Virus record (IMG/VR): IMGVR_UViG_3300018080_008436 | Location: 246,998 to 310,997 of that record | Direction: 5' to 3' (one strand) | DNA length: 64,000 nucleotides | Origin: a virus | Shown: in pieces, positions 30,228 to 57,197 of the stretch | Layout of the letters: each line of letters opens with the position of its first letter | Numbering within the stretch: position 1 is the first letter of the stretch | The notes under the pieces: model-generated | What the model saw: the letters and a program-made list of their open reading frames with translations, nothing else | The model's database searches: none | What the model was told of the DNA's origin: nothing | Made by a program: the position numbers and the translations under genes

Positions 30228-30252
30228 AAAAAACCCCGACCAGAAGTCGGGG
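30228..30252 (-). terminator. Intrinsic terminator in Phe operon leader (second)
   Basis: CCCCGAC and GTCGGGG pair in a 7-bp stem with a T6 run on the minus strand, immediately before the first tRNA-Phe. Second of two tandem terminators. Confidence 0.8.
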
Positions 30253-30264
30253 CCAAAATACACG

Positions 30265-30289
30265 AAAAAAACCCCGACGAATGTCGAGG
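30265..30289 (-). terminator. Attenuator terminator of the Phe tRNA operon
   Basis: CCTCGAC and GTCGGGG form the stem, followed by T7 on the minus strand. The 5' arm at 30283-30289 is also perfectly complementary to GTCGAGG at 30324-30330, which overlaps the stop codon of the leader peptide, so an alternative antiterminator can form. Confidence 0.75.
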
Positions 30290-30329
30290 TTAAAAAGATC
30301 TAAACAACACTTTGATCTAACTACCTCGA

Positions 30330-30374
30330 CTAGAGGTGGCTAAAAAATCGAAAGATGTTGTTTAAGTTGTTCAT
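30330..30374 (-). CDS. Phe-rich leader peptide of the tRNA-Phe operon
   Basis: A 14-codon open frame encodes MNNLNNIFRFFSHL. AAAAGGA lies about 8 nt before the ATG and a TTGAAA/TATAAT promoter just upstream. Three Phe codons (TTT) fall in IFRFF, and the two tRNAs downstream are both tRNA-Phe. The peptide closely resembles the enterobacterial PheM leader of pheST ([14 protein letters not shown]). Likely a sensor for Phe-tRNA charging, not a functional product. Confidence 0.7.
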   Translation of the reverse strand: MNNLNNIFRFFSHL

Positions 30375-30399
30375 AATGTAAAATCCTTTTGTTGCCCCT

Positions 30400-30427
30400 A
30401 TTATAGGGTATCATCCATGCTTTTCAA
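30400..30427 (-). promoter_or_regulatory. Sigma70-type promoter of the Phe tRNA operon
   Basis: TTGAAA at 30422-30427 and TATAAT at 30400-30405 on the minus strand, 16-bp spacer, preceded by GAC. Same layout as promoters at 36060, 57170 and 61834. Confidence 0.8.
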
Positions 30428-30442
30428 GTCAGAACTGCAAAA

Positions 30443-30694
30443 TTAATCCAATTCAAGCATATCAATAAGATCAGCCTTACTTCTATATCCTGCAAACTTC
30501 AACTGAGGATCATCCACAAAAGACATAGGAACGGCCATAATGCCGAGTCTTTGAGCTTCTTTGAGGTTATCTGGATCTTCAGTCGGCTTAAGCTCTACTT
30601 TTACTTCTGGGTACTCTTCTACCAGTTTGTCAAGCTCTTTCTTGAGTCTCTTACATGGGATACAGTGCTCTCCTGTAAAAACTGTTACTTTCAT
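30443..30694 (-). CDS. Glutaredoxin/thioredoxin-like protein
   Basis: 83 residues with the redox motif TGEHCIPCKRLKKEL (CxxC at about 11-14), then VELKPTEDPDNLKEAQRLGI and a cis-Pro loop MAVPMSFVDD. Length fits NrdH/glutaredoxin-like phage proteins that donate electrons to ribonucleotide reductase. AAGGAG supports the start; it follows the ADP-ribosylglycohydrolase gene by 12 bp. Confidence 0.85.
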   Translation of the reverse strand: MKVTVFTGEHCIPCKRLKKELDKLVEEYPEVKVELKPTEDPDNLKEAQRLGIMAVPMSFVDDPQLKFAGYRSKADLIDMLELD

Positions 30695-30706
30695 TTTCTT
30701 TCTCCT

Positions 30707-31489
30707 TTAGGTTAAAAAATCTTTGTCAACGTAATGCACCATGAACTTACATACAGTATCGATAAGTTCATCAGGCATTCTTTTAAAACATTCGTTCACA
30801 AACTCATCTGGAACGTTTTTGTAATATGCATGAGCAATTGAGCCAGCCATAGCCGCAATGGTATCGCTGTCTCCACCCATCATTACTGCTTCTCTTATTG
30901 TACTCTCAAAATCCTCAGAATACAAGAAAGCGTATACAGCTTGCGGAACTGTCTCCTGGCAACTACAATTAAATCCTAGATGCTCAGAGGTCAAAATAAG
31001 GTCCGTTCTGTATCCAAACGACTCTACTGCTTCTCTAATTTCTTGCTTTGTCCCTCCATGCCAAGCTATGAATGTTGCCAAAGCAATTGCTTGAGCACCT
31101 TTAACTCCCTCTTCATGATTATGAGTCGCATCAGCACTCTTTTTGGCCTCTGCTAGAACATCCTTTTTAGATCTGCAATAGAAAGCAACAGGGCTAACTC
31201 TCATCGCAGACCCATTGCCATAACTATTATACCCTTCTTCTTGCTCACTTAAAGCCCACTCTTTGAAAGCACTACCATACCCTCTATCTTTGTAATTTCT
31301 ATAGTATTCACGAATAGATTGTGAATAGTTTCCTGAATTCATCAAAACATCTGCTACTGCGCAGGTTAGAACAGTATCGTCAGTAAAAATACACTTCTTG
31401 TTGAATAGAAGAAAATTTTTGGTTTTGGGGTGTCTTTTTGGGCCTTCCCAACGAGAGCCTATTATGTCTCCTAAAATCGCGCCTATCAC
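30707..31489 (-). CDS. ADP-ribosylglycohydrolase (DraG/ADPRH family)
   Basis: 260 residues. GAILGDIIGSRWEGPKRHPK near the N-terminus, IFTDDTVLTCAVADVLM with the TDDT Mg-binding motif, and MMGGDSDTIAAMAGSIAHAY with GGDSDT near residue 205 are the three family signatures. It removes ADP-ribose from proteins, nucleic acids or small molecules. The start is a GTG at 31489 with AAGGAGA about 7 nt upstream, overlapping the homing-endonuclease stop as GTGA. The original 5' end appears displaced (see 32535-32603). Confidence 0.9.
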   Translation of the reverse strand: MIGAILGDIIGSRWEGPKRHPKTKNFLLFNKKCIFTDDTVLTCAVADVLMNSGNYSQSIREYYRNYKDRGYGSAFKEWALSEQEEGYNSYGNGSAMRVSPVAFYCRSKKDVLAEAKKSADATHNHEEGVKGAQAIALATFIAWHGGTKQEIREAVESFGYRTDLILTSEHLGFNCSCQETVPQAVYAFLYSEDFESTIREAVMMGGDSDTIAAMAGSIAHAYYKNVPDEFVNECFKRMPDELIDTVCKFMVHYVDKDFLT

Positions 31490-32505
31490 AATCTTTCTCC
31501 TTTTACTCTTTCCTTTTCGTACCCTAACCAAACTTTCCAACTTTTCCAGCCTCTATCTTTATAAGTCCTATCTGGCACACTTGGTAAACAAACAGGTCTA
31601 GTATTTTCTTTCCAATATAAACACCATTCTGTTTTGCTTCTTATTCCCAATTTATGAACGAATTTTTCTGCTTCTTTATAAGGCATAAACCCACTTTTTG
31701 CAACTTTTATACTCCCCAAATCATAAAATTTGTTCTTTTTCCTTATTAAAAATAAATTCGAAGGAGTGTTATACATATATTCTCTTAAAAGTATCGAACT
31801 GTTCTTAGCCACCCTAACTCTATAATACTTCTCTTTTAAACTTCTAACATTCCCCCTAAAACCATTTATATTTTCTTTTAATTTTAATAACAAACCATAT
31901 GAGAACTTCTCACTTCCACTAGTAAGAGATGATTCTATGGAGTTCCTAGATATAGATACATTACCGTCTCCGTCCCATAGCCCTCGTATAAAATCTGGCA
32001 GAAATTCTTCTGGAACATTAGGCATTTCACATGTCAGGCTTTTTCTCTCAGTTCCACCTATTTTTTTAATTGATTCAACTAAATTTCTACAATAAATGTT
32101 CAAATGACAATATTTGCTTCTTGTCTCTTTAATGGGTCCATCAAAACCCATCGTTTTTGCGATTAACTCTAATAGATATTTATCTTTATTACTTTGCGTA
32201 ATTGAAAACAAACTTTCATAAATACACCCATCTGCCCACCAAAAACCCAAAATATACGCCATATCATGAGTCCATATCTCAAAGAAATCCTCATTTATCG
32301 AATATTTATCTCTTTTATAGGACATCTTTTTATACCCCATCCAATCCATGTACGAAACCCATTCCGACTTATATACTTGATGAGGACTGCGAGGAATGAA
32401 TGGAGGTCTGTTGTTTTTACACCAATCTTCCCATTCTGACTGCTTTTTAAGACCTAATTGACGTACATATTGTCTTGCTTCTTCAAATAACAGGAATTTA
32501 CTCAT
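31486..32505 (-). CDS. LAGLIDADG homing endonuclease flanked by integrase-type repeats
   Basis: 339 residues. Two LAGLIDADG helices are visible: YILGFWWADGCIY (near residue 84) and FIRGLWDGDGNVSI (near 185), giving a single-chain two-motif enzyme. Both ends carry a similar unit of about 55 residues: the N-terminal FEEARQYVRQLGLKKQSEWE ... YMDWMGYKK and the C-terminal YKEAEKFVHKLGIRSKTEWC ... WKVWLGYEK. These resemble the DNA-associated integrase repeat unit (INT_rpt). It sits at the 5' end of the ADP-ribosylglycohydrolase gene. AAGGAGAG supports the ATG. Confidence 0.85.
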   Translation of the reverse strand: MSKFLLFEEARQYVRQLGLKKQSEWEDWCKNNRPPFIPRSPHQVYKSEWVSYMDWMGYKKMSYKRDKYSINEDFFEIWTHDMAYILGFWWADGCIYESLFSITQSNKDKYLLELIAKTMGFDGPIKETRSKYCHLNIYCRNLVESIKKIGGTERKSLTCEMPNVPEEFLPDFIRGLWDGDGNVSISRNSIESSLTSGSEKFSYGLLLKLKENINGFRGNVRSLKEKYYRVRVAKNSSILLREYMYNTPSNLFLIRKKNKFYDLGSIKVAKSGFMPYKEAEKFVHKLGIRSKTEWCLYWKENTRPVCLPSVPDRTYKDRGWKSWKVWLGYEKERVKGERL

Positions 32506-32534
32506 TTCTTACTCTCCTTAAATGTTTTCGTCAT

Positions 32535-32603
32535 TTAATTCAAATAATTATGCACTTTATCCTGCGATTGACCCAACATTTTTCCGATGATTGCTCCGAT
32601 CAT
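32535..32603 (-). pseudogene. Displaced 5' fragment of the ADP-ribosylglycohydrolase gene
   Basis: A 22-codon frame encodes MIGAIIGKMLGQSQDKVHNY plus two residues, with AAGGAC 8 nt upstream. Its start matches the expected N-terminus of ADP-ribosylglycohydrolases (compare VIGAILGDIIG at the present GTG start, 1.1 kb downstream). It reads as the old 5' end left behind when the homing endonuclease gene entered. Confidence 0.6.
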
Positions 32604-32630
32604 AGTCTTTGTCCTTGTATTAAATCGATA

Positions 32631-32945
32631 TTACCAAGCGGCTTTTATTGTATGATTTCCCTCGGCATCATATGTGATTTGTTGCCAATAACCAGATGAG
32701 TCTGTATGGAGAATAATCCTACCCAAAACATCGTATGACCAATACTGCCATGCTCCATTATAGAAATCAATCCTTACGCATTGTTTCTTATCATTATATG
32801 ATCTTCTGTGCCATTCCCCTTTGGAATTATTGTAGGCTATCCAAAGCCCTGCTTTATCATACTCTTTGGTTTCCCAAACTCCATTATCATGGACATCTCG
32901 TATGATTTGCCCCCCATCTTTCGTTCTTGTTACAAATGAAGGCAT
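32631..32945 (-). CDS. YD-repeat-like small protein
   Basis: 104 residues made of short aromatic repeats: DNGVWETKEYDKAGLWIAYN, YNGAWQYWSYDVLGRIILHT, SSGYWQQITYDAEGN. The pattern resembles Rhs/YD-type or MORN-like repeats, and is shared with the protein at 39532-39957 (YDDLGRVIRYDDSDGYWAEW). GAGGT precedes the ATG at 32945. Function unknown; possibly a beta-rich binding module. Confidence 0.6.
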   Translation of the reverse strand: MPSFVTRTKDGGQIIRDVHDNGVWETKEYDKAGLWIAYNNSKGEWHRRSYNDKKQCVRIDFYNGAWQYWSYDVLGRIILHTDSSGYWQQITYDAEGNHTIKAAW

Positions 32946-33007
32946 GTTGTTACCTCTTTCGTAAAGGCGTTGCACATCATTATTCTAAAAGCCGAATAGG
33001 GAATCCT

Positions 33008-34111
33008 TTATCGGTGATCAGCCATCTCTTTCAGAATTCTTGAGAACCAAAGTTTTCTTGAAAATTCCCAAGCTTCATTTTGGGTTTCTTCGTTCTCATC
33101 TTTAACAGAAAAAGAACCCATTGGTATCCTTGCGGCTCCTGCACCCATTTTTCCGCCACCATGTTCTTTCCCAAAAATCTTTTTACAGATCTTATCAACA
33201 TCAATGGCCAGTCCGCTACTTCTAACACTGACTTCCAGGTTATCTCCGACAATAGCAACAATAAAAGAAGTGTCAATACCCTCGACTCTAGCTCTTTCTT
33301 CAGCTATACTTGGAAGGGCATCTCTTTTTGCAGGGGTTATGTAACCAATTCCTCCAAGAAACACTCCATTCTCTGAAATAGCATGTCCGTCATGGTCCAA
33401 TCTTTTTCTAAGATCAAAATGATATGGTGGAATTGGATAGTTGATGATTTTAGCAAGCATTTTTTGATCTGTAACAACAATCAAGCTCTTATACGCATCA
33501 AAATCGAGATCTGTAACGACATCTGTAACTAAATCGCACGTATCTGTCTTAATGCCAATTAACAATGCTGTTGCAACATTAGAATCTTCTTCTGACATTT
33601 TGTCGAACTCTATTTTAGCCTGCATCATGTATTCCCATACAATCGTGGAAGCAGAGCCGACACTTCTAATGTCTTTTAATTTTGCCTTCTTTGTATCACC
33701 TTTATGATGATCAATAACCAAAGTGTAGACTGCATTGGGTATTGCGCTCCTTTCTGGAATGGTATCTACACAAACATATATGTCGGCAAAATTCTCAACA
33801 TCTTCAGGAGTTTGAAGTTCCCCCTCAACCTCATCAACATGCGTTAACTGAAGATTAAGAACATTAATCATAGTTTTGTTTTGGGGATGGGAAATCTCTC
33901 CACTATAAATCAAAGAAACTCTAGCTTCTGGAAGCCAACTTCTGATAAGTCTTTTGAGTCCATATGCAGATCCGATACAGTCTGGGTCTGGACAGGAATG
34001 CATTGTTATTGCAATATGAAGTTGATGATTTGCCTCAAAAACCTCAAAAAGTTCATCTTTGAACTGATCTGCAATATGGTCAACATTCTTTACTTCTTCT
34101 TTTTCATCCAT
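33008..34111 (-). CDS. DHH-family phosphoesterase (NrnA-like)
   Basis: 367 residues. HIAITMHSCPDPDCIGSAYG (near residue 31) holds the D-x-D-x-x-G/S metal motif, YVCVDTIPERSAIP the next Asp, and YTLVIDHHKGDTKK the DHH triad near 135. The C-terminal DHHA1 part has HGGGKMGAGAARIPMGSF, with Lys where GGGH usually has His. Family members degrade nanoRNA or pAp/c-di-nucleotides; phage versions could recycle oligoribonucleotides or remove signalling dinucleotides. AAGGAG start. Confidence 0.85.
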   Translation of the reverse strand: MDEKEEVKNVDHIADQFKDELFEVFEANHQLHIAITMHSCPDPDCIGSAYGLKRLIRSWLPEARVSLIYSGEISHPQNKTMINVLNLQLTHVDEVEGELQTPEDVENFADIYVCVDTIPERSAIPNAVYTLVIDHHKGDTKKAKLKDIRSVGSASTIVWEYMMQAKIEFDKMSEEDSNVATALLIGIKTDTCDLVTDVVTDLDFDAYKSLIVVTDQKMLAKIINYPIPPYHFDLRKRLDHDGHAISENGVFLGGIGYITPAKRDALPSIAEERARVEGIDTSFIVAIVGDNLEVSVRSSGLAIDVDKICKKIFGKEHGGGKMGAGAARIPMGSFSVKDENEETQNEAWEFSRKLWFSRILKEMADHR

Positions 34112-34141
34112 CTTCTTCTCCTTAATAAATAGAAAACGACT

Positions 34142-34172
34142 CCTACATTGGTTAATATAGGAGTCGTTTAGG
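34142..34172 (-). terminator. Intrinsic terminator after the small zinc protein
   Basis: AAACGACTCCTA and TAGGAGTCGTTT form a 12-bp stem, with TTTTC after it on the minus strand. It ends the 34184-34381 transcript. Confidence 0.7.
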
Positions 34173-34183
34173 ATAAGTCAAGC

Positions 34184-34381
34184 TCAGGAAACAACTAAAT
34201 TTTCAGATTCTTCTGACTCGTTTTCAGCCAGTAAATTCTCTTTACACTCTTCGCAAATTCCATGCGACAGCATAATTAGTCGATCCTCTACATAATGATC
34301 CACTTCATGCGTAGAAATGCTGATAGTTTTTCTGCACCAAGCGCATCCAACTACAATCGTTTGTAAGTATATGTCTTTCAT
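34184..34381 (-). CDS. Small treble-clef-like zinc protein
   Basis: 65 residues with two CxxC pairs: VGCAWCRKTISISTHEVDHY and HGICEECKENLLAENE, spaced 29 residues apart, as in treble-clef or DksA-like zinc knuckles. The acidic tail ends in VVS. It has its own promoter (34428-34455), so it is probably a monocistronic, well expressed gene. Confidence 0.65.
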   Translation of the reverse strand: MKDIYLQTIVVGCAWCRKTISISTHEVDHYVEDRLIMLSHGICEECKENLLAENESEESENLVVS

Positions 34382-34427
34382 TTTTATTCCTACACATAGT
34401 GGGGTTAGTTTTCTTCCATTAGGGTAT

Positions 34428-34455
34428 ATTATACTACATATTCTGAGGAAGTCAA
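34428..34455 (-). promoter_or_regulatory. Sigma70-type promoter for the small zinc protein
   Basis: TTGACT at 34450-34455 and TATAAT at 34428-34433 on the minus strand with a 16-bp spacer. Divergent from the plus-strand promoter about 30 bp away. Confidence 0.7.
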
Positions 34456-34687: not shown

Positions 34688-34765
34688 TGGTCGGGATAGC
34701 TGGATTCGAACCAGCGACTCCTTGACCCCCAGTCAAGTGCTCTAACCAGGCTGAGCTACATCCCG
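34688..34765 (-). tRNA. tRNA-Pro(GGG)
   Basis: Acceptor CGGGATG/TATCCCG, anticodon stem CTTGA/TCAAG with loop CTGGGGG, T-loop TTCGAAT, encoded CCA. Last tRNA of the Glu/Pro operon. Confidence 0.95.
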
Positions 34766-34814
34766 ACAATTATTCCGACACTTATCCCGACATTTTGTCG
34801 GGATTCAGAAAAAC

Positions 34815-34930
34815 GCCAGTGTATTGCTCATTTATACTACCTCACAAAGTTTAGAATGCTGAATAGAACCTTATTCAAGTTCACTTTTAATAGTACTGTA
34901 TGGGTGGGATTCGAACCCACATCTCTGGCT
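34815..34930 (-). tRNA. Candidate circularly permuted tRNA 1
   Basis: On the minus strand a 3' half comes first: GCCAG, AGAT, T-arm GTGGG/CCCAC with TTCGAAT, then CCATACA. After a 50-nt spacer the 5' half follows: TGTGAGG, TA, a perfect D-stem GTAT/ATAC, then CTGGC. CTGGC pairs fully with GCCAG (anticodon stem) and TGTGAGG pairs with CCATACA at six of seven positions (acceptor). No anticodon can be assigned. The 3' half begins one base after the CCA of tRNA-Glu(CUC). Could also be tRNA debris. Confidence 0.4.
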
Positions 34931-35006
34931 TGGTATCCCCAACGGGAATTGAACCCGTATCTGTTGGTTGAGAACCAACTATCCTAGACCGTTAGACGAT
35001 GGGGAC
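34931..35006 (-). tRNA. tRNA-Glu(CUC)
   Basis: Acceptor GTCCCCA/TGGGGAT, anticodon stem GTTGG/CCAAC with loop TTCTCAA, T-loop TTCAATT, encoded CCA. Confidence 0.95.
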
Positions 35007-35013
35007 ATTAAAA

Positions 35014-35141
35014 ATGAGTCGGAAGGAATCGAACCTTCATTCCCTGGTTGATTTATTAAACATCAAATAGTTGCTGGAACGAAACTTATACAGTTTCACT
35101 TGGTTTTATGTCCAGGAGTTCTACCATTAAACTACGACCCA
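35014..35141 (-). tRNA. tRNA-like gene with 64-nt anticodon-loop insertion
   Basis: Acceptor TGGGTCG/CGACTCA, D-stem GTTT/GAAC around AATGGTA, T-arm GAAGG/CCTTC with TTCGATT. The anticodon stem CCTGG/CCAGG encloses 64 nt (35048-35111) instead of 7. The insertion contains the hairpin GAAACT-GTATA-AGTTTC and a CAGCAA tail shared with two other places in this operon. The anticodon is therefore unknown; the gene is either intron-bearing or interrupted. Confidence 0.5.
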
Positions 35142-35161
35142 AGTTGTATCTCTAATGAGAT

Positions 35162-35238
35162 TGGTCGGGTATGCAGGATTCGAACCTGCGATCTCATCAT
35201 CCCAAATGATGCGCCTTACCAGACTAGGCTAATACCCG
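35162..35238 (-). tRNA. tRNA-Pro(UGG) 2
   Basis: Acceptor CGGGTAT/ATACCCG, anticodon stem CATCA/TGATG with loop TTTGGGA, T-loop TTCGAAT, encoded CCA. Confidence 0.95.
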
Positions 35239-35242
35239 ATAC

Positions 35243-35411
35243 AGAAGTGTTTTATCCTGTTAAACTATCCCCAACAAGATCGTACTTTAAGTCATCTGAC
35301 ACTAACTCATTTCTGACCCCAGAATATATTTTATTGTTTTGAATGTCAGTTCGTAACAACTACTTTACACTCTTAAGCCGAGGCTGGGACTCGAACCCAG
35401 ATCTCTCCTTT
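35243..35411 (-). tRNA. Candidate circularly permuted tRNA 2
   Basis: 3' half first: AGGAG, AGAT, T-arm CTGGG/CCCAG with TTCGAGT, then CCTCGGC. After 101 nt the 5' half: GTTGGGG, D-stem GTTT/AAAC, then CTTCT. CTTCT pairs with AGGAG and GTTGGGG with CCTCGGC at all seven positions allowing G-U pairs. One extra base lies between acceptor and D-arm. The 3' half starts right after the CCA of the upstream tRNA and the 5' half ends 4 nt before tRNA-Pro(UGG), so flanking tRNA processing would free both ends. Confidence 0.4.
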
Positions 35412-35502
35412 TGGTGACGCAGACGGGATTCGAACCCGCAAAGGAATCTCTTCCTACCAGATTGAAAGTCTGGTTACTTCAGGCCAATTTGTATACTGCG
35501 CC
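35412..35502 (-). tRNA. tRNA-Glu(UUC) with long variable arm
   Basis: Acceptor GGCGCAG/CTGCGTC, anticodon stem CCAGA/TCTGG with loop CTTTCAA, T-loop TTCGAAT, encoded CCA. The variable region is about 17 nt and folds as GGAA/TTCC, a type II arm that Glu tRNAs never normally carry. Discriminator A. Confidence 0.8.
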
Positions 35503-35511
35503 ATTTTTTAG

Positions 35512-35629
35512 TCAGGACGGCTGGATTCGAACCAACTCCTTTAGCTCCTCAAGCTAAAATAAATATTGCTGTAGCGAACCTTATTGTCAAGTTCATGTTT
35601 ATAACGTGCTACCATTACACTACGTCCTG
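35512..35629 (-). tRNA. tRNA-like gene with 47-nt insertion before the anticodon arm
   Basis: Acceptor CAGGACG/CGTCCTG, D-arm GTGT/GCAC around AATGGTA, T-arm GTTGG/CCAGC with TTCGAAT, no CCA. A hairpin TTAGC/GCTAA with loop TTGAGGA (anticodon would read GAG, Leu) lies at the anticodon position. Between D-arm and this hairpin are 47 extra nt (35558-35604) holding GAACTT/AGGTTC and CAGCAA. Leu identity is doubtful because the variable region is only 4 nt. Confidence 0.5.
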
Positions 35630-35674
35630 ATGGTCTGACCCTCAAAAATCATAAGTCTGATTCTCGAAAAGTCA

Positions 35675-35753
35675 TGGTCTGGATGGTAGGATTCGAACCT
35701 ACGCTACTCCTCAGTCCAAGTGAGGCGGGATGACCAGACTTCCCCACATCCAG
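35675..35753 (-). tRNA. tRNA-Pro(UGG) 1
   Basis: Acceptor CTGGATG/CATCCAG, anticodon stem CCTCA/TGAGG with loop CTTGGAC, T-loop TTCGAAT, encoded CCA. Confidence 0.95.
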
Positions 35754-35783
35754 ATTAAGTCTTCTAAATTTTCAAAGATCATT

Positions 35784-35859
35784 TGGTGACCCCAGTGGGA
35801 ATCGAACCCAACCTTCCCAGGATGAAAACCTGGTGTCCTAGCCGATAGACGATGGGGCC
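35784..35859 (-). tRNA. tRNA-Glu(UUC)
   Basis: Acceptor GGCCCCA/TGGGGTC, anticodon stem CCAGG/CCTGG with loop TTTTCAT, T-loop TTCGATT, encoded CCA. First tRNA of the Glu/Pro operon. Confidence 0.95.
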
Positions 35860-35868: not shown

Positions 35869-35900
35869 AAAAAAGCCCTCCTAACGCAAGCTAAGAGGGC
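35869..35900 (-). terminator. Second leader terminator of the Glu/Pro tRNA operon
   Basis: GCCCTC pairs with GAGGGC around a 14-nt inner loop, followed by T6 on the minus strand, 10 nt before tRNA-Glu. Confidence 0.75.
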
Positions 35901-35902
35901 AC

Positions 35903-35934
35903 AAAAAAAGCCCTCCCGCTCATGGCAGAAGGGC
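35903..35934 (-). terminator. Attenuator terminator of the Glu/Pro tRNA operon
   Basis: GCCCTTC and GGGAGGGC form the stem, with T7 on the minus strand. Its 5' arm CCTTCTGCC (35924-35932) can instead pair with GGCAGGAGG (35972-35980) inside the leader reading frame, nine consecutive pairs. Confidence 0.75.
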
Positions 35935-35956
35935 CAAAATCATAGTTATGATCTAA

Positions 35957-36034
35957 CTACAGATCGGCTGACCTCCTGCCAAAGGCTGGCGGTTCTTCTC
36001 GTTCTGGTTCTCGAATGTACATGTAGTTGTTCAT
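35957..36034 (-). CDS. Glu/Pro-rich leader peptide of the Glu/Pro tRNA operon
   Basis: 25 codons encoding MNNYMYIREPEREEPP and then AFGRRSADL. AAAGGA precedes the ATG and a TTGAAA/TATAAT promoter lies about 30 bp upstream. Four Glu (all GAA) and three Pro codons are packed in REPEREEPP, and the operon downstream encodes three Glu and three Pro tRNAs. Likely a charging sensor. Confidence 0.7.
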   Translation of the reverse strand: MNNYMYIREPEREEPPAFGRRSADL

Positions 36035-36059: not shown

Positions 36060-36087
36060 ATTATAAACCATCCTAGAGACTTTTCAA
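36060..36087 (-). promoter_or_regulatory. Sigma70-type promoter of the Glu/Pro tRNA operon
   Basis: TTGAAA at 36082-36087 and TATAAT at 36060-36065 on the minus strand, 16-bp spacer, GAC before the -35 box. The remaining 36088-36171 shows no further feature. Confidence 0.8.
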
Positions 36088-53062: not shown

Positions 53063-53072
53063 GGAGTAAATT

Positions 53073-53663
53073 ATGGCTAACAGAATATTTGATGATTATC
53101 AAGGAGCATCCGTTAAAATAAACGGTATTTGCTATAAATTTATTGGAGAAACAACAAGACCATTTGATTCTCATCCAAGTGAAATTGAAGGAACTTTTGA
53201 TACTTGTTTGGCATGTGCTGTTGAAAGTTCATCTTCAGAAAGTACCCAGTCTTCCAGTTCTGAATCAATTAATAACTTTAGCTCTTCTTCTGAATCAATT
53301 GAAAATACTTCATCAAGTGAATCAATTGCATGTCAAGAAGGAGATATCCAATTTGTGCTAAGTCAAGCAAACGCTTTGCAATTTTCTCCCCCAGTATTTT
53401 TCGGAGTTATTCCAGAAGGAACCGTTTGTGTTGATGGGGTACATGAAGGAACTTATACAAATTATGGTGGAGAAGATTTAATTGTTTTTAGTGATTCAGG
53501 AGCTTATCAAAGCTATACTGATGGACAAACCATTGAAGTTTGTGAAGGGGTTTGTTTGCCACAAGCAGTTTATAAGTATAGCAATCTACAACTGAATGTA
53601 TCACCAAACACATATAGATATACTCCAGTTATAATTGAGTCAAGTTCATCAAGTTCAGGATAA
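53073..53663 (+). CDS. Fibre/adhesin family A, short form without C-terminal domain
   Basis: 196 residues: docking module, Ser linker and the middle module, which is nearly identical in its first half to the one in the preceding gene (GDIQFVLSQANALQFSPPVF in both). It ends in a short strand (QLNVSPNTYRYTPVIIESSS). The DNA identity between 51780-51960 and 53270-53450 points to recent duplication or gene conversion. Confidence 0.7.
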   Translation: MANRIFDDYQGASVKINGICYKFIGETTRPFDSHPSEIEGTFDTCLACAVESSSSESTQSSSSESINNFSSSSESIENTSSSESIACQEGDIQFVLSQANALQFSPPVFFGVIPEGTVCVDGVHEGTYTNYGGEDLIVFSDSGAYQSYTDGQTIEVCEGVCLPQAVYKYSNLQLNVSPNTYRYTPVIIESSSSSSG

Positions 53664-53678
53664 ATTTTAGGAGGATTT

Positions 53679-54161
53679 ATGGATTTATATTTTTTACAAG
53701 ACCAAGGAGACGCTTTGGTTTATAATGACGGAATTGCATATGAGTTTGTTGAGCAAACAGTTCAAGTCCCAAATGCAAGTGGAGCGCAAGTTATTGAAGG
53801 AAACATCTCTTCATTTAATTTCAGCATTGCTGACGCACAATTAAAAACAGCTTACACTGCTGGTGAACATGCTTTGGCTTTTTATGTTGATGAAAATAAA
53901 ATTGAAGTTGACATGCCCCTTGCCAACACTTGGTATACTTTCCCCGATGTTCCAGTTGCAGGAGTTATTCGGGTTTGGCAAACGGGAGCATTTTACCCAA
54001 ACATAAAAATTAATGGTATTGATCAGGCCGTTAACGCAGGAACAAGCAAAGCTAGTGCAATGCCATACAATGTTGCTGTTGGAGATGTAATCGAAATACG
54101 AGAACCAACTACTAGTGGAAACACTGGGTACGGATATATATTGCCATTTGTTTATCCATAA
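53679..54161 (+). CDS. Putative fibre-associated beta protein
   Basis: 160 residues, unrecognised, beta-rich: GDALVYNDGIAYEFVEQTVQ, GEHALAFYVDENKIEVDMPL and GVIRVWQTGAFYPNIKINGI. AGGAGG supports the ATG. As the last gene of the fibre block, ahead of a shared terminator, it may be a tip, chaperone or carbohydrate-binding protein. Confidence 0.5.
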   Translation: MDLYFLQDQGDALVYNDGIAYEFVEQTVQVPNASGAQVIEGNISSFNFSIADAQLKTAYTAGEHALAFYVDENKIEVDMPLANTWYTFPDVPVAGVIRVWQTGAFYPNIKINGIDQAVNAGTSKASAMPYNVAVGDVIEIREPTTSGNTGYGYILPFVYP

Positions 54162-54185
54162 ATTGGGCGCAAGGATTGAATTAAA

Positions 54186-54211
54186 AAAGGGTGGACTAAG
54201 TCCACCCTTTA
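54186..54211. terminator. Bidirectional terminator between fibre block and Hsp20
   Basis: AAAGGGTGGACT and AGTCCACCCTTT form a near-perfect 12-bp palindrome with an A-run on one side and T-run on the other, between convergent genes. Confidence 0.85.
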
Positions 54212-54220
54212 ACATTTACT

Positions 54221-54550
54221 TCATTCAGTTAGTACAGGGATCTTCTTCGGTTTGCCCCTACTAGACTTCGGCAAACTAATTTTAAGAACTCCATTGTCTA
54301 AAGCACTTTTTATCTTACTTACCGCAACATCATTTGGAAGTCTGAAGGATAAATCTTTTTTGCCATAAGCTCTCTTCCTATATCCACCTTCTTTATCTCG
54401 TTCCCAAGAAATGTCCAAATAATTGTCCTTTGCATAAACCTCTACTTTGTCCTTCTCGACACCTGGCATATCAACTCTTACTTCATAGCTTTCATCATTT
54501 GTCCAAGTGTCATACTCAACGTCTCTGTTAAAAAAGAAATCAGAATACAT
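54221..54550 (-). CDS. Small heat-shock protein (Hsp20/alpha-crystallin)
   Basis: 109 residues. YEVRVDMPGVEKDKVEVYAK, LDISWERDKEGGYRKRAYGK and KDLSFRLPNDVAVSKIKSAL-DNGVLKISLPK make up a complete alpha-crystallin domain, with a very short N-terminal arm and the C-terminal IPVL-type I-x-V anchor (KKIPVLTE). A holdase chaperone, also found in T4-like and cyanophages. GGAGGA upstream. Confidence 0.95.
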   Translation of the reverse strand: MYSDFFFNRDVEYDTWTNDESYEVRVDMPGVEKDKVEVYAKDNYLDISWERDKEGGYRKRAYGKKDLSFRLPNDVAVSKIKSALDNGVLKISLPKSSRGKPKKIPVLTE

Positions 54551-54681
54551 AACTTGTTCCTCCTTTAGTTAGTTTGTTATGCAATTTTACTAAAAAGCAA
54601 AACACATGCCAACTCTATTTAAGCAGGAATCTAGGTAAGAAAAGGGACAGTTTGACACATATAAGTGAGACAAATGGGCGC

Positions 54682-54708
54682 AAAAAAGCGCCATCCTAAA
54701 ATGGCGCT
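54682..54708 (-). terminator. Terminator of the 13-tRNA operon
   Basis: AGCGCCAT and ATGGCGCT pair in an 8-bp stem with T6 on the minus strand, just after the last tRNA. The sequence 54551-54681 shows only the Hsp20 ribosome site. Confidence 0.85.
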
Positions 54709-54714
54709 TGAGTT

Positions 54715-54806
54715 TGGGCGCAAGGACGGAATTCGAATCCGTAGGGGAGATTACCTCCAACAGGGTCACAACCTGTCACGCTAAGCCAATTACGTTCTAC
54801 CTTGCG
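54715..54806 (-). tRNA. tRNA-His(GUG) with long variable arm
   Basis: Acceptor CGCAAGG/CCTTGCG, discriminator C, encoded CCA, anticodon stem ACAGG/CCTGT with loop TTGTGAC, T-loop TTCGAAT. The variable region folds as GGAG/CTCC (about 17 nt), a type II arm not expected for His. The D-arm is also irregular. Confidence 0.75.
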
Positions 54807-54809
54807 ATG

Positions 54810-54883
54810 GGCTACTCGACGGATCTTGAAACCGCAACCTCCAGGGCCACAACCTAGCGCTCTGCCTTTGAGCTACGAGTAGC
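54810..54883 (-). tRNA. tRNA-His(GUG)
   Basis: Acceptor GCTACTC/GAGTAGC, discriminator C as in His tRNAs, anticodon stem CTAGG/CCTGG with loop TTGTGGC. CCA is not encoded in full. Confidence 0.9.
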
Positions 54884-54894
54884 ATCAAATTGGT

Positions 54895-55566
54895 CTATCC
54901 CAACCATTTGTCTCTTTTAAATCCACCTATTTCTTGAATGCCTCCCATAATTTTTTGTTTTATTTCAACGCTGTGTAATCTTACTGTGCAAATTCCGTAT
55001 TTTAGTTTACCCTGAAATTCGCTAGATTTAAAATAACATTTTCTCAAATTTTCTTTCGTCAAACTAAGTGCATTAAGCCAAAATTCAACAATCTCTTGTT
55101 CAGAAACTCCATTGTTTGTATAGGCATTTATAGAAAGAGCAAATCTTTTTTCTTCAAACTCAAAGTGTTCTCTAAGGAACTTCATAAAAAGAATCATCAT
55201 GTCAATATCGCTATTGCAGAATGTCACTCCTTTATTGGATTCTTTTGTTCCTTCTGCCCAATAAAGAATACAGCCAACCCGAAAACTTTCAGATATTTTA
55301 GCAAGTGCTCTTCCATCAGTTTGCCACTTCCTTCTTTTTCTTCTGAATTTTTCCGAATATTTCTCCTGTTTACCAAAATAACCACCTTTTCTTGTTTTTG
55401 TCCTGTGCCGCAATTTTAGGTTTTCTATTTGTTCTTTCGTTAGTTGAATATCTCGAACCCATAAACTAACAGACGATTGAGACACATCTAGAATCTTGGC
55501 TATTTTCTTTATAGATTGTCCACTTTTTCTTAGTTCTCTTGCTTTGTTTCTTTCGACTTTTTTCAT
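54895..55566 (-). CDS. HTH plus LAGLIDADG-like protein within the tRNA operon
   Basis: 223 residues. ELRKSGQSIKKIAKILDVSQ-SSVSLWVRDIQ is a helix-turn-helix at residues 10-45. FRVGCILYWAEGTKESNKGV and the FCNSDIDMMILFMKFLREHF segment match a LAGLIDADG/WhiA-like fold widespread in bacterial and archaeal genomes. The start at 55566 follows GGGGG; the long frame to 55659 has no ribosome site and enters tRNA-Met. Its place inside a tRNA array suggests a selfish or regulatory element. Confidence 0.65.
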   Translation of the reverse strand: MKKVERNKARELRKSGQSIKKIAKILDVSQSSVSLWVRDIQLTKEQIENLKLRHRTKTRKGGYFGKQEKYSEKFRRKRRKWQTDGRALAKISESFRVGCILYWAEGTKESNKGVTFCNSDIDMMILFMKFLREHFEFEEKRFALSINAYTNNGVSEQEIVEFWLNALSLTKENLRKCYFKSSEFQGKLKYGICTVRLHSVEIKQKIMGGIQEIGGFKRDKWLG

Positions 55567-55624
55567 TTTCGAACCCCCATAGTTATATGTGATATAACAT
55601 ATTATACAGCAAGTTCGAACTTTT

Positions 55625-55699
55625 TGGTAGCAGTATCGGGACTTGAACCCGAACGGCACTCCTTATGAAAGAGTCGCACTACCATTATGCTATACTGCT
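55625..55699 (-). tRNA. tRNA-Met(CAU)
   Basis: Acceptor AGCAGTA/TACTGCT, anticodon stem ACTCT/GGAGT with loop TTCATAA, T-loop TTCAAGT, encoded CCA. Paired 1-72, so not a standard bacterial initiator; elongator Met or lysidine-modified Ile cannot be separated here. Confidence 0.9.
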
Positions 55700-55753
55700 A
55701 TGAAAGTCTTGGGCTAACCATTGCCCAACCTAGCGTCATTTATCGTATCCAAT

Positions 55754-55828
55754 TGGCGGTGATAAGGGGAATCGAACCCCTGTCCTCTGGGCGACAACCA
55801 GAAATCCTAGCCATTAAACGATATCACC
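55754..55828 (-). tRNA. tRNA-Asp(GUC) 1
   Basis: Acceptor GGTGATA/TATCACC, discriminator G, encoded CCA, anticodon stem TCTGG/CCAGA with loop TTGTCGC, T-loop TTCGATT. Confidence 0.95.
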
Positions 55829-55834
55829 GATAAG

Positions 55835-55908
55835 CGGAACCGAAGGGACTCGAACCCTCAATCTCCTGATCGACAGTCAGGGGCACTAACCAATTGCGCT
55901 ACGGCTCC
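55835..55908 (-). tRNA. tRNA-Asp(GUC) 2
   Basis: Acceptor GGAGCCG/CGGTTCC, discriminator G, anticodon stem CCTGA/TCAGG with loop CTGTCGA, T-loop TTCGAGT. CCA not encoded. Confidence 0.9.
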
Positions 55909-56026
55909 ATAAAACTGAAAGCTCTAAAGTTTTCGTTAGTCTTTTTGCTTTCGCTCATACTCCTATACTCTTTATTGTCCAATCCAGTTGTCAATTGGCT
56001 CTAAGGAACGATACGAACTTTCAGTT

Positions 56027-56103
56027 TGGTGACGACAGTTGGACTTGAACCAACGCTCTCCAGTGTGTCGAACTGGCGATTTATCCATCTAATCTATGCC
56101 GTC
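56027..56103 (-). tRNA. tRNA, probably Val(GAC), atypical anticodon loop
   Basis: Acceptor GACGGCA/TGTCGTC, anticodon stem CCAGT/ACTGG, T-loop TTCAAGT, encoded CCA. The 7-nt loop reads TCGACAC, so position 33 is C rather than U and the anticodon would be GAC. A 9-nt loop reading is also possible. Confidence 0.65.
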
Positions 56104-56107
56104 AATT

Positions 56108-56185
56108 TGGTTCTGCGAGAGGGACTTGAACCCCCGACCTCCTCCTTATCAGGGAGGCGCTACTTACCATCTGAGCTACCGCAGA
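56108..56185 (-). tRNA. tRNA-Ile(GAU)
   Basis: Acceptor TCTGCGG/TCGCAGA, anticodon stem CCTCC/GGAGG with loop CTGATAA, T-loop TTCAAGT, encoded CCA. Confidence 0.95.
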
Positions 56186-56190
56186 ATCAT

Positions 56191-56281
56191 TGGTGGGAGT
56201 AGCAGGACTTGAACCTGCGTTTACCTTTCGGCCTCCTGTGTATCAGACAGGCGCTCTAACCAAATACTGAGCTATACTCCC
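56191..56281 (-). tRNA. tRNA-Ile(GAU) with long variable arm
   Basis: Acceptor GGGAGTA/TACTCCC, anticodon stem CCTGT/ACAGG with loop CTGATAC, T-loop TTCAAGT, encoded CCA. About 16 nt between anticodon and T stems, with GCC-GAAA-GGT pairing, forms a type II-like arm. Confidence 0.8.
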
Positions 56282-56341
56282 ATAACATTCTTTTTGCATT
56301 GTAACATCATCAATGTTATCGTGCAAATTTGATGTTACAAT

Positions 56342-56416
56342 TGGCAGGGACGAAAGGATTTGAACCCTTACCGCATGGTTTTGGAGACCAGCAGGCTACC
56401 ATTACAACACGCCCCT
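56342..56416 (-). tRNA. tRNA-Trp(CCA)
   Basis: Acceptor AGGGGCG/CGTCCCT, discriminator G, anticodon stem TGGT/ACCA with loop CTCCAAA, T-loop TTCAAAT, encoded CCA. Confidence 0.95.
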
Positions 56417-56421
56417 GTTAG

Positions 56422-56497
56422 TGGTACTCCTACCAGAACTCGAACCTGGATCTTCGACTTCGAAGGCCGTTATTCTAATCCATTGAACTATAGGAGC
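56422..56497 (-). tRNA. tRNA-Arg(UCG)
   Basis: Acceptor GCTCCTA/TAGGAGT, T-loop TTCGAGT, encoded CCA. Anticodon stem CGGC/GTCG with loop CTTCGAA and an A-A mismatch at 27-43. Confidence 0.85.
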
Positions 56498-56531
56498 ATC
56501 TACATATAAATTTTCAAAGAACTCTAATTCT

Positions 56532-56608
56532 TGGTACACCCAGCAGGATTTGAACCTGCAACCTCCTGGTTCGTAGCCAGACGCTCTATCCAATTGAGCT
56601 ATGAGTGC
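56532..56608 (-). tRNA. tRNA-Arg(ACG)
   Basis: Acceptor GCACTCA/TGGGTGT, anticodon stem CTGG/CCAG with loop CTACGAA, T-loop TTCAAAT, encoded CCA. Decoding needs host TadA inosine formation. Confidence 0.95.
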
Positions 56609-56613
56609 AACTT

Positions 56614-56690
56614 TGGTACTCCTGGCGGGACTCGAACCCACATAGACCTGTTTAGAAGACAGGTGCCTGATCCAGTTAGACTACAGGAGC
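56614..56690 (-). tRNA. tRNA-Arg(UCU)
   Basis: Acceptor GCTCCTG/CAGGAGT, anticodon stem CCTGT/ACAGG with loop CTTCTAA, T-loop TTCGAGT, encoded CCA. Reads AGA, the commonest Arg codon in AT-rich phage genes. Confidence 0.95.
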
Positions 56691-56698
56691 ATCTAAAA

Positions 56699-56854
56699 TT
56701 ATTTCAACTTTTCTTTCGCTTTTTTCAAATCCTCAATTAACTGTTTCTTTGAGTAGTTTCTGCCTACCCAAACTAATTCATACATTTTCTCGTCTTTTTG
56801 ATTCTGAACACTGTTCAGAACTCGTTCTAAAATCTCTTGTGCTGTTTCTTTCAT
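56699..56854 (-). CDS. 51-residue helical protein between tRNA genes
   Basis: MKETAQEILERVLNSVQNQK, then MYELVWVGRNYSKKQLIEDL and KKAKEKLK. Helical and charged, no known family. Its Shine-Dalgarno AGGAG lies in the 3' acceptor strand of tRNA-Arg(CCU), so tRNA processing would cut off the ribosome site and limit translation to unprocessed transcripts. Confidence 0.65.
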   Translation of the reverse strand: MKETAQEILERVLNSVQNQKDEKMYELVWVGRNYSKKQLIEDLKKAKEKLK

Positions 56855-56857
56855 TTT

Positions 56858-56932
56858 TGGCCTCTCCTATAGGACTCGAACCTATATCTGCGGTTTAGGA
56901 AACCGATATTCTATCCCTTGAACTAAGGAGAG
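56858..56932 (-). tRNA. tRNA-Arg(CCU)
   Basis: Acceptor CTCTCCT/AGGAGAG, discriminator G, encoded CCA, anticodon stem CGGT/ACCG with loop TTCCTAA, T-loop TTCGAGT. First tRNA of the 13-tRNA operon. Confidence 0.9.
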
Positions 56933-56940
56933 TCAGGCAC

Positions 56941-56972
56941 AAAAAAAGCCCAAGCTCCTTAGAGCCTGGGCT
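56941..56972 (-). terminator. Attenuator terminator of the 13-tRNA operon
   Basis: AGCCCAGGCTC and GAGCTTGGGCT pair over 11 bp with a 4-nt loop and T7 on the minus strand, 9 nt before tRNA-Arg(CCU). Its 5' arm can instead pair with leader sequence at 57017-57031. Confidence 0.8.
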
Positions 56973-56991
56973 TCGTAAATCTGCTTATCTA

Positions 56992-57072
56992 TCAGAACAT
57001 GCGATAGCGCAGATCAGAAGCCCTGTGGCTCCAATCGCGTCTAATAATATGCATGTCTCTAACAACGTTCAT
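56992..57072 (-). CDS. Leader peptide of the 13-tRNA operon
   Basis: 26 codons: MNVVRDMHIIRRDW, then SHRASDLRYRMF. AAGGA lies about 10 nt before the ATG. Six Arg codons; the VVRDMHIIRRDW core consists only of amino acids served by the downstream tRNAs (Val-like, Arg, Asp, Met, His, Ile, Trp). The promoter lies about 100 bp upstream. Confidence 0.7.
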   Translation of the reverse strand: MNVVRDMHIIRRDWSHRASDLRYRMF

Positions 57073-57117
57073 TTTTCTTAAATCCTTATTCGATTTAGTT
57101 TTTCAACTTACCCTCAT

Positions 57118-57154
57118 TAGTCACATTTGATTTGAGTTTTTCTCAGATCTGTAC
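57118..57154. repeat. 37-bp direct repeat, copy 1
   Basis: Matches 57733-57769 at 31 of 37 positions, in the same orientation: TAGTCACATTTGAT, then a variable four bases, TTTTTC and AGATCTGTAC. Lies in the untranslated leader of the 13-tRNA operon. Confidence 0.8.
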
Positions 57155-57169
57155 CAAGAAGTTATTATC

Positions 57170-57197
57170 ATTATAAGCCTTATTCAGAGTATTTCAA
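57170..57197 (-). promoter_or_regulatory. Sigma70-type promoter of the 13-tRNA operon
   Basis: TTGAAA at 57192-57197 and TATAAT at 57170-57175 on the minus strand with a 16-bp spacer and GAC before the -35 box. Confidence 0.8.

What the first reader, a model, noticed from the sequence alone, without database searches (positions are those of the whole stretch)
30228..57197. Leader-peptide attenuators appear to control all three phage tRNA operons
At 30.3, 36.0 and 57.1 kb the order is the same: TTGAAA-16-TATAAT promoter, short open frame with Shine-Dalgarno starting MN, one or two intrinsic terminators, then tRNAs. Each leader is rich in the amino acids carried by its own downstream tRNAs, and in each a leader segment can pair with the 5' arm of the first terminator. 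Known amino-acid attenuators control biosynthetic or synthetase genes (trp, his, pheA, pheST). Use on tRNA operons of a phage would be a new application: uncharged or nuclease-depleted tRNA would stall the leader ribosome and switch on replacement tRNAs.
Basis: partly seen in the sequence, partly recalled or inferred. Interest (0 to 1): 0.95.

Follow-up and report, generated by a model that had tools for sequence, protein, structure and literature searches.

The report
Phage tRNA operons with codon-sensing switches
A giant bacteriophage appears to put a small translated test message in front of most of its tRNA genes, so that ribosomes stalling for lack of exactly those tRNAs would switch on their production; I found no earlier report of such control of tRNA genes, and it would make the old question of why phages carry tRNAs directly testable.

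Summary
The window lies in a 476-kb phage record. Its three leaders exist as described, and four more tRNA operons elsewhere in the genome have the same layout. Each of the seven leader peptides is rich in the amino acids carried by its own tRNAs: of 5040 leader-operon pairings only the true one scores this high. TTKTTKTTKTTKK precedes Thr/Lys tRNAs; SLSLSLCSSYLSL precedes Cys/Tyr/Leu/Ser tRNAs. The match is frame-specific. In 7 of 7 a leader segment pairs with the terminator's 5' arm better than shuffles, and the control codons end about where a ribosome would begin to cover that segment. Non-homologous leaders matching other tRNA sets occur in distant phages (27 clusters, 0 of 100,000 permutations), though many clusters there show none. 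Best explanation: ribosome-mediated transcription attenuation that makes tRNAs when those tRNAs run short. Translation, termination, read-through and the natural signal are untested; isoacceptor-level sensing has modest, mixed support. Eight targeted full-text searches found no earlier report.

The parts
30400..30427 (-). Promoter of Phe-tRNA operon, TTGAAA-16-TATAAT, followed by AGGGGCAAC
   Evidence: same -35/-10 at six other leader operons
30330..30374 (-). Leader ORF 1 MNNLNNIFRFFSHL*, three Phe codons, all TTT
30322..30331 (-). Region 2 (antiterminator strand, AGTCGAGGTA) overlapping the leader stop codon; 8 bp with the terminator 5' arm
   Evidence: dG -13.6 vs shuffle mean -5.4, 0 of 500 as good
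30270..30291 (-). Intrinsic terminator 1 (regions 3:4)
30232..30254 (-). Intrinsic terminator 2; its 5' arm is complementary to the 3' arm of terminator 1 (dG -17.2), so both could be switched together
30069..30224 (-). Two tRNA-Phe(gaa) genes
36060..36087 (-). Promoter of Glu/Pro-tRNA operon
35957..36034 (-). Leader ORF 2 MNNYMYIREPEREEPPAFGRRSADL*
35963..35980 (-). Region 2 in the 3' part of leader 2 (GGCAGGAGGTCAGCCGAT)
   Evidence: dG -18.2 vs -10.7, P=0.002
35909..35935 (-). Intrinsic terminator 1 of Glu/Pro operon
35875..35900 (-). Intrinsic terminator 2 of Glu/Pro operon; 5' arm complementary to 3' arm of terminator 1 (dG -15.4)
34688..35859 (-). Glu/Pro tRNA genes (6 by ARAGORN; a further tRNA match at 35014-35141 by Rfam)
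57170..57197 (-). Promoter of Arg/Trp/Ile/Val/Asp/Met/His operon
56992..57072 (-). Leader ORF 3 MNVVRDMHIIRRDWSHRASDLRYRMF*, containing all seven amino acids of the operon
57016..57032 (-). Region 2 (GGAGCCACAGGGCTTCT) in leader 3
   Evidence: dG -21.6 vs -11.0, 0 of 500 as good
56945..56974 (-). Intrinsic terminator of operon 3
54808..56932 (-). Twelve tRNA genes Arg x4, Trp, Ile x2, Val, Asp x2, Met, His (His lies about 740 bases beyond Met; co-transcription not shown)

Best explanation
Each leader is a ribosome-mediated transcription attenuator that controls its own tRNA operon. RNA polymerase starts at the shared promoter type and a ribosome translates the short leader. If all the tRNAs needed for the leader's block of test codons are available, the ribosome runs on, covers region 2, the terminator hairpin (3:4) forms and transcription stops before the tRNAs. 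If any of those tRNAs is scarce or uncharged, the ribosome stalls inside the block, region 2 stays free and captures the terminator's 5' arm (2:3), and polymerase reads through into the tRNA genes. In the two operons with tandem terminators, the freed 3' arm of terminator 1 can capture the 5' arm of terminator 2. The result would be a set of negative feedback loops that make phage tRNAs when those tRNAs run short. Shown from sequence: layout, codon match, alternative pairings, geometry and recurrence in unrelated leaders. Inferred: translation, termination, stalling and the physiological signal.
For: Seven leaders in the genome: the own-set match is the best of 5040 pairings; Fisher over seven 4.5e-20. 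Reading-frame control: own-set fraction 0.23-0.72 in frame versus 0.00-0.30 in the other frames, in-frame highest in 7 of 7. Terminator 5' arm complementarity P<=0.004 in 7 of 7. Ribosome masking: with the A site at control codons the arm is sequestered with mean probability 0.62-0.89; at the stop codon 0.02-0.38. Control codons lie before the occlusion boundary: Fisher 2.8e-6 to 3.8e-11 over five assumed footprints; the Phe leader alone is uninformative, P=0.58 at +10. Permutation tests that score every ATG ORF upstream: genome 11 clusters 0/100,000; distant clade 27 clusters 0/100,000; LR745208.1 8 clusters 256/100,000; 81 clusters of seven further jumbo records (some counted twice) 100/50,000. 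Window leaders fold better than shuffles, z -6.4, -5.3, -5.0.
Against: No RNA or translation data. At thermodynamic equilibrium the full terminator still wins at every control-codon stall in four of seven leaders (ArgEtc, GlnAsn, ValAla, CysTyrLeuSer) and at some in the other three, so the switch needs co-transcriptional kinetics. Without a ribosome the Glu/Pro leader prefers 2:3 (P(term) 0.35), so its first terminator alone would leak; only the second would stop it. Glu(ctc), Pro(ggg) and Arg(tcg) have no cognate codon in their leaders. In the all-ORF test the Phe operon's own set ranks 2 of 11, and a leaderless Gly cluster scores rank 1 with a short ORF (MNYGGGFSPPQEPTG) that lies among tRNA-like sequences. 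Alternative pairing is not significant in five of nine relatives nor in phiCbK (P=0.126). In LR745208.1 my U-tract terminator scan found none. Five of 12 tRNA clusters of the genome have no leader. In the clade 19 of 27 clusters do not rank their own set first or second. Several tRNA-rich isolates show no significant signal singly.
Confidence: 0.86

Rival explanations
1. Same attenuators, but the natural signal is amino-acid starvation (charging level) rather than loss of tRNA molecules; the tRNA operons are simply part of a starvation response.
For: Stalling depends on charged tRNA, so starvation would trigger it too (established knowledge). Isoacceptor-level tuning is only modest: anticodon coverage 32/35 is not above the synonymous-codon null (P=0.25), and in relatives codon readability is not raised (129/148 vs 128.8).
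Against: More tRNA does not relieve starvation for its amino acid. In this genome the control codons are readable by the operon's own isoacceptors more than expected (74/76 vs 69.2, P=0.0025), e.g. Val GUA/Ile AUA before tRNA-Val(tac)/Ile(tat) but GUU/AUU before tRNA-Val(gac)/Ile(gat); in relatives anticodon coverage is 77/88 vs 70.6, P=0.016.
Confidence: 0.22
2. The leader acts with the opposite sign or by another route: completed translation, not stalling, promotes tRNA transcription (e.g. by excluding Rho or keeping the polymerase coupled).
For: No expression data exist. The Glu/Pro leader without ribosome prefers the antiterminator.
Against: Terminator-like hairpins precede the tRNAs in 7 of 7. 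The control-codon block ends about where region 2 becomes occluded, which is the geometry of stall-induced read-through.
Confidence: 0.06
3. The leaders encode small functional peptides and the resemblance to tRNA sets is incidental.
For: The phiCbK candidate leader is conserved and annotated as a hypothetical protein in the five phages compared.
Against: Compositions are extreme and differ per operon in step with the tRNAs; leaders of three phages for the same set (G000, G042, G051: Cys/Leu/Ser/Tyr) share composition.
Confidence: 0.03
4. Chance: short ORFs upstream of tRNAs picked for resemblance.
For: The relatives were partly chosen by composition.
Against: All-ORF permutations and the reading-frame control.
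Confidence: 0.01

Closest known systems
Leader-peptide transcription attenuators of enterobacterial trp, his, thr, leu, ilv, pheA and pheST operons (recalled); ilvL-type attenuation in Caulobacter and leader peptides of trpE, leuA, ilvB, aroF in Corynebacterium are mentioned in PMC4117421 and PMC3890552 (passages)
   Same: Short translated leader rich in control codons, mutually exclusive 2:3 and 3:4 hairpins, intrinsic terminator before the controlled genes.
   Different: Controlled genes are tRNA genes, not biosynthesis or aminoacyl-tRNA synthetase genes; leaders test up to seven amino acids at once; seven such units in one phage genome cover 19 amino acids (all but Gly); two have tandem terminators with cross-complementary arms.
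T-box riboswitches (recalled)
   Same: Sense tRNA state and control transcription termination.
   Different: Bind tRNA directly without translation; no Rfam T-box match at gathering score in the window.
Phage tRNAs that replace host tRNAs cut by anticodon nucleases or retron effectors (PMC11555353, passages; PMC10264068, search listing, start of abstract and term search of the 22,760 characters held)
   Same: Supplies a reason for a phage to make tRNAs when host tRNAs are depleted.
   Different: 'attenuat' and 'leader peptide' occur 0 times in the texts searched; a section heading of PMC11555353 speaks of a strong promoter driving the phage tRNA-Tyr.
phiCbK-like phages (Gill et al. 2012, PMC3556154, passages)
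   Same: tRNA array preceded by a 45-codon ORF rich in Ser/Thr/Ala/Leu/Pro/Lys and, in the phiCbK record, an annotated Rho-independent terminator.
   Different: The paper lists the tRNAs; 'attenuat' and 'leader peptide' occur 0 times.

Membership tests
Ribosome-mediated (leader-peptide) transcription attenuator | Short ORF with ribosome-binding site, enriched in codons for the regulated amino acids | tested here: met
   7 of 7 in the genome; (translation itself not tested)
Ribosome-mediated (leader-peptide) transcription attenuator | Intrinsic terminator between leader and controlled genes | tested here: met
   terminator-like hairpin plus T-run in 7 of 7; (activity not tested)
Ribosome-mediated (leader-peptide) transcription attenuator | Alternative antiterminator pairing of a leader segment with the terminator 5' arm | tested here: met
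   7 of 7 at P<=0.004; 4 of 9 relatives below 0.05
Ribosome-mediated (leader-peptide) transcription attenuator | 1:2 protector/pause hairpin in the absence of a stalled ribosome | tested here: inconclusive
   A local hairpin involving region 2 is in the MFE of the Phe and Arg-etc. leaders; the Glu/Pro leader folds 2:3 instead. The other four leaders were not folded this way.
Ribosome-mediated (leader-peptide) transcription attenuator | Read-through depends on stalling at control codons | not testable with these tools
   needs expression data; only modelled
Rfam amino-acid leader families and T-box | Match to a described RNA family | tested here: not met
   21 matches in the window, all RF00005 tRNA; no amino-acid leader or T-box among 11 matches at E<=10 around leader 3, the only leader searched that permissively; the four leaders outside the window were not searched against Rfam

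The most novel reading that the evidence does not exclude
Large phages carry a genome-wide tRNA-supply control system: most major tRNA operons are gated by their own translated codon checklist, so the phage senses, by ribosome stalling, which decoding capacity the cell has lost (for example to host tRNA-cutting defences) and switches on just the operon that restores it, in part at isoacceptor resolution. It would be a feedback loop in which tRNA shortage itself turns on tRNA genes, of which I know no other case (recall), and it appears with unrelated leaders across several huge-phage groups.
Probability: 0.5. Interest if true: 0.96.

Novelty: new variant of a known kind. Interest (0 to 1): 0.92.

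Why it matters
Why phages carry tRNA genes is debated (codon compensation versus replacing tRNAs cut by host defences). If each operon is gated by stalling at codons read by its own tRNAs, the phage itself tells us what the tRNAs are for: to be made when that decoding capacity is missing. It gives a direct test, a predictive signature for annotating phage tRNA operons, and modular RNA sensors of specific tRNA shortage. Eight full-text searches aimed at leader-peptide control of tRNA genes gave no report of it.

Tried and rejected
Tried: Rfam search: only tRNAs at gathering score; the permissive hits near leader 3 (Spot_42, NsiR1) are far below cut-off. Near-identity search of phage records: no match. 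Closer relatives with intact tRNA operons: scans with PhoH, DnaE (36, none), terminase (48, 63), ADP-ribosylglycohydrolase (125) and a 171-aa neighbour (126). These gave a near-identical strain (G001: 6 of 7 leader ORFs found, each identical; the seventh not found in the stretches searched) and contigs of 8-94 kb at 50-76% terminase identity, none of which had a convincing tRNA (one weak match in G006). So compensatory changes within one leader could not be studied.

First judged LR745208.1 negative because my reading demanded a U-rich terminator and a Shine-Dalgarno; the all-ORF test and inspection overturned that. Isoacceptor coverage as proof of tRNA-level sensing: not significant in this genome (P=0.25); readability not significant in relatives. 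XacN1 (MNKPYYKRYYAKA before Lys/Lys/Tyr) left as weak: no terminator seen and a tRNA-like sequence lies upstream. G015, G040 and G056 leaders fit in composition but I saw no clear terminator. T4-type RNA ligase search uninformative because no control genome rang.

Limits of the counts: the 12 relatives were partly chosen by composition, so one search is the fair test. One search was given 23 clade loci; left out were the strain G001, G049 (same leader as G045), G050, G006, a second stretch of G013, and loci with only CTA tRNAs or none; clusters with under 150 bases upstream were dropped, and several clusters come from one phage. One search used 20 loci of seven records chosen by size and tRNA number from the 13 (11 had tRNAs); overlapping stretches count a few clusters twice, and G063/G065 share homologous leaders. 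In one search terminator arms of relatives were chosen by eye; those of G013, G023 and G045 were not found by my hairpin finder. One search scanned the genome in pieces, so a site across a piece end could be missed. Listings were cut. Papers: most listed hits were not opened; opened by term search only.
Full report
WHAT THE WINDOW IS. The window is G000:C1:246998-310997 of a 476,248-base virus record, a jumbo phage with matches to terminase, portal, a DnaE-type polymerase, a RecD2-like helicase and a tRNA nucleotidyltransferase. ARAGORN finds 58 tRNA genes in the record. Its host is unknown. The nearest relative met is a near-identical 296-kb fragment. In the collection of deposited phage records the best terminase match is 25% identical over 91% of its length, in LR745208.1.

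CHECK OF THE OBSERVATION. At all three places the described order is present on the minus strand: TTGAAA-16-TATAAT, a short ORF with an AAGGA/AGGA site, one or two strong terminator-like hairpins, then tRNAs. The leaders are MNNLNNIFRFFSHL (before two tRNA-Phe), MNNYMYIREPEREEPPAFGRRSADL (before Glu/Pro tRNAs) and MNVVRDMHIIRRDWSHRASDLRYRMF (before Arg, Trp, Ile, Val, Asp, Met and His tRNAs). Against proteome background the first two are weakly enriched on their own (P=0.017 and 0.014), the third strongly (1.5e-5).

HELD-OUT TEST IN THE SAME GENOME. Four more operons outside the window have the same promoter type, leader ORF and terminator: MYATTKTTKTTKTTKKRVASGGLLS before Thr x3/Lys x2; MSVQVQQNNQNNQALEGFGRLFSA before Gln/Asn; MKKRVEIAIAVVAVAVVADGQGFSALSG before Val(tac)/Ala/Ile(tat); and MKSLSLSLCSSYLSLRWTGLCVQRT before Cys/Tyr/Leu/Ser. 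Of 16 TTGA[AC]A-15..18-TATAAT sites found in the genome, seven are these operons; one more precedes a CTA-anticodon tRNA directly and one (window 61861) precedes a long, apparently non-coding stretch. Assigning leaders to operons in all 5040 ways, only the true assignment reaches the observed match. For the four held-out leaders alone the true assignment is first of 24 and the combined P is 1.9e-15. The match is specific to the reading frame. By position the seven operons hold 49 of the 58 tRNAs (list; co-transcription not shown) and 19 of 20 amino acids; Gly tRNAs lie in an array at 78-80 kb that I read as starting directly after a promoter, without a leader. Clusters without a leader are at 20, 23-24, 78-80, 110 and 409.7 kb.

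STRUCTURE. In 7 of 7 leaders a segment in or at the end of the leader is complementary to the terminator's 5' arm, with duplex energies of -13.6 to -24.7 kcal/mol, at least as good as 99.6% of 500 dinucleotide shuffles. In both tandem-terminator operons the 3' arm of terminator 1 is complementary to the 5' arm of terminator 2 (-17.2 and -15.4 kcal/mol), so one switch could disarm both. I modelled a ribosome at every codon (A-site codon plus 10 nt masked). In a transcript that has just made the terminator's 5' arm, the arm is captured upstream when the ribosome sits on control codons (mean 0.62-0.89) and released at the stop codon (0.02-0.38). The control codons lie before the position where the ribosome starts to cover region 2: combined P between 2.8e-6 and 3.8e-11 for assumed footprints of +6 to +14 nt. 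Against this, at equilibrium on the full hairpin the terminator wins at every control-codon stall in four of seven leaders and at some in the other three; in known attenuators the outcome is decided during transcription (established knowledge), which is what I assume here.

CODONS OR AMINO ACIDS. Of 76 control codons (Met/Trp aside) 74 can be read by tRNAs of their own operon; the synonymous-codon null is 69.2 +/- 1.5 (P=0.0025). Coverage of distinct anticodons, 32 of 35, is not above the null (P=0.25). Examples are GUA/AUA before tRNA-Val(tac)/Ile(tat) and GUU/AUU before tRNA-Val(gac)/Ile(gat). In 12 leaders of relatives, coverage is 77/88 versus 70.6 (P=0.016) but readability is not raised (129/148 versus 128.8). 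So tuning to isoacceptors has modest, mixed support.

OTHER PHAGES. Terminase alignments led to distant relatives. For every tRNA cluster I scored all ATG ORFs of 10-45 codons in the 450 bases upstream against the cluster's own tRNA set and permuted sets between clusters: 27 clusters of the clade, observed 46.7, permuted mean 21.4, 0 of 100,000 as high; LR745208.1, 8 clusters, 256 of 100,000; the window phage, 11 clusters, 0 of 100,000, own set first in 7 (one of them the leaderless Gly cluster) and second for Phe. In the clade the own set ranked first or second in 8 of 27 clusters and lower in 19, so the signal is strong but not universal. Leaders with a terminator (those of G013 and G045 seen by eye only) are non-homologous and fit their own operon: G011 MSFKNDNNWRDADDNTSSRLVVRS (Asn, Asp, Trp) and MKNVSVSIMCGSVSCSSGAPDSFA (Ile, Cys, Ser, Met, Gly, Val); G013 MKTITIVKKMVMIKGGVPRLR (Val, Met, Ile, Lys); G042 MKQNLSSSLSCLYLSLSNRALTLQG and G051 MNRNLSLSSSCYYSLLLSYSNSWAGSVM (both Cys, Leu, Ser, Tyr); G045 MNNNIIFFDAPANAQPDPAQI (Pro, Ala, Asp, with Gln 3 kb on). 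In LR745208.1, a public record, examples are MNQHLHHHCY before Tyr/Cys/His and MFDRATNSIPSLKLELLLSCAGVDLCTRA before five Leu tRNAs, whose Leu codons cover all five anticodons. Seven of 13 further jumbo records searched were fetched: 81 clusters, some counted twice, 100 of 50,000; examples in G062, G063, G065 and G067, none convincing in G059, G066 or G069. Alternative pairing in nine leaders of relatives: combined P=2.1e-5, individually below 0.05 in four.

CULTURED PHAGES. Six isolates were tested: pooled over 51 clusters 124 of 20,000; taken singly none is significant (Bacillus phage G, Forrest, Grayson, KVP40, XacN1; phiCbK has only three clusters, its true pairing being among the best possible, 3338 of 20,000). 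phiCbK has one strong-looking candidate: MFALSHNSLSTKAASPASLSLAPLATATKPSTKPTTSASHSTDHL before Pro, Lys, Leu, Ala and Ser tRNAs by ARAGORN, with an annotated terminator between. CcrRogue, CcrBL10 and Ccr10 also have tRNA-Thr by ARAGORN, which the Thr codons of the leader would predict, but phiCbK and RBC57 show none in the stretch read. The 2012 genome paper, in contrast, reports no Thr tRNA in any of its six phages and Ala tRNA not in phiCbK (passage), so the tRNA sets depend on the finder. An 8-base complement to the terminator arm lies downstream of the leader stop codon and is not significant in this GC-rich sequence (P=0.126). I treat it as a candidate and as the easiest place for an experiment.

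MECHANISM. See Best explanation. Shown: anatomy, match, pairing potential, geometry, recurrence. Inferred: that the leaders are translated, that the terminators work in the host, that stalling opens them, and that shortage of the tRNAs is the natural signal. That cut host tRNAs are a trigger rests on published phage-tRNA rescue from retron-Eco7 and a PrrC nuclease (PMC11555353, passages). The phage also carries a tRNA nucleotidyltransferase-like and a polynucleotide kinase/phosphatase-like protein, consistent with, but not proof of, tRNA upkeep.

COMPARISON AND NOVELTY. It works like the trp/his/pheA type of attenuator and meets the testable sequence features in this genome. It differs in what is controlled (tRNA genes), in testing several amino acids per leader, and in being deployed as a genome-wide set. 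Literature: eight full-text searches aimed at leader-peptide control of tRNA genes and two on neighbouring topics gave no report of it. Term searches inside four papers on phage tRNAs or huge phages, the phiCbK genome paper and five others from the listings found leader peptides or attenuation only for amino-acid and synthetase genes, not for tRNA genes. Most listed hits were not opened and the library lacks most subscription papers. Hence: new variant of a known kind, with high interest.

Recounting corrected several figures (8, not 9, of 27 clusters; seven, not six, records; footprint P range down to 3.8e-11; CTA-tRNA promoter spacer 16) and added results against the reading; none required changing the odds.

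Noticed in passing
window 61354-61861 (-): The same promoter type (CTTGAAAAG..TTATAATGGAAC) precedes about 490 bases of apparently non-coding sequence with GGTTACTGCAACC-like motifs and a terminator-like end, then the gene of a 477-aa protein (phrog_850 RNA-binding protein; DUF2828/DUF7788). Possibly a Y-RNA-like RNA with a Ro-type partner (recalled idea).
   Followed up: partly
G000:C1:409748-409822 (locus L022, 9748-9822): A tRNA with CTA anticodon directly behind a TTGACA-16-TATAAT promoter; CTA tRNAs recur in relatives G011, G041, G042, G045, G049, G056 and G057. Leaders 1 and 2 of the window end in TAG, so amber suppression would extend them.
   Followed up: no
window 35014-35141 and about 35512-35630; G000:C1:78150-80020: tRNA-like sequences with long insertions; the 78-80 kb array seems to hold several that ARAGORN and Rfam miss, starting right behind a promoter without any leader.
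   Followed up: partly
L348 ~10246, W01 leaders (L145-L148): Some leaders start only a few to about twenty bases after the -10 element, so they may be leaderless mRNAs, unlike the Shine-Dalgarno leaders of the window phage.
   Followed up: no
L155, L160, L271-L280 (G005, G008, G014): Terminase or portal matches in relatives are lengthened or split within the contig, suggesting introns or inteins in the packaging genes.
   Followed up: no
leader promoters listed: A G-rich stretch (AGGGGCAAC/GGGGGTAAC and the like) directly after the -10 in four of the seven, reminiscent of stable-RNA promoter discriminators (recalled).
   Followed up: no
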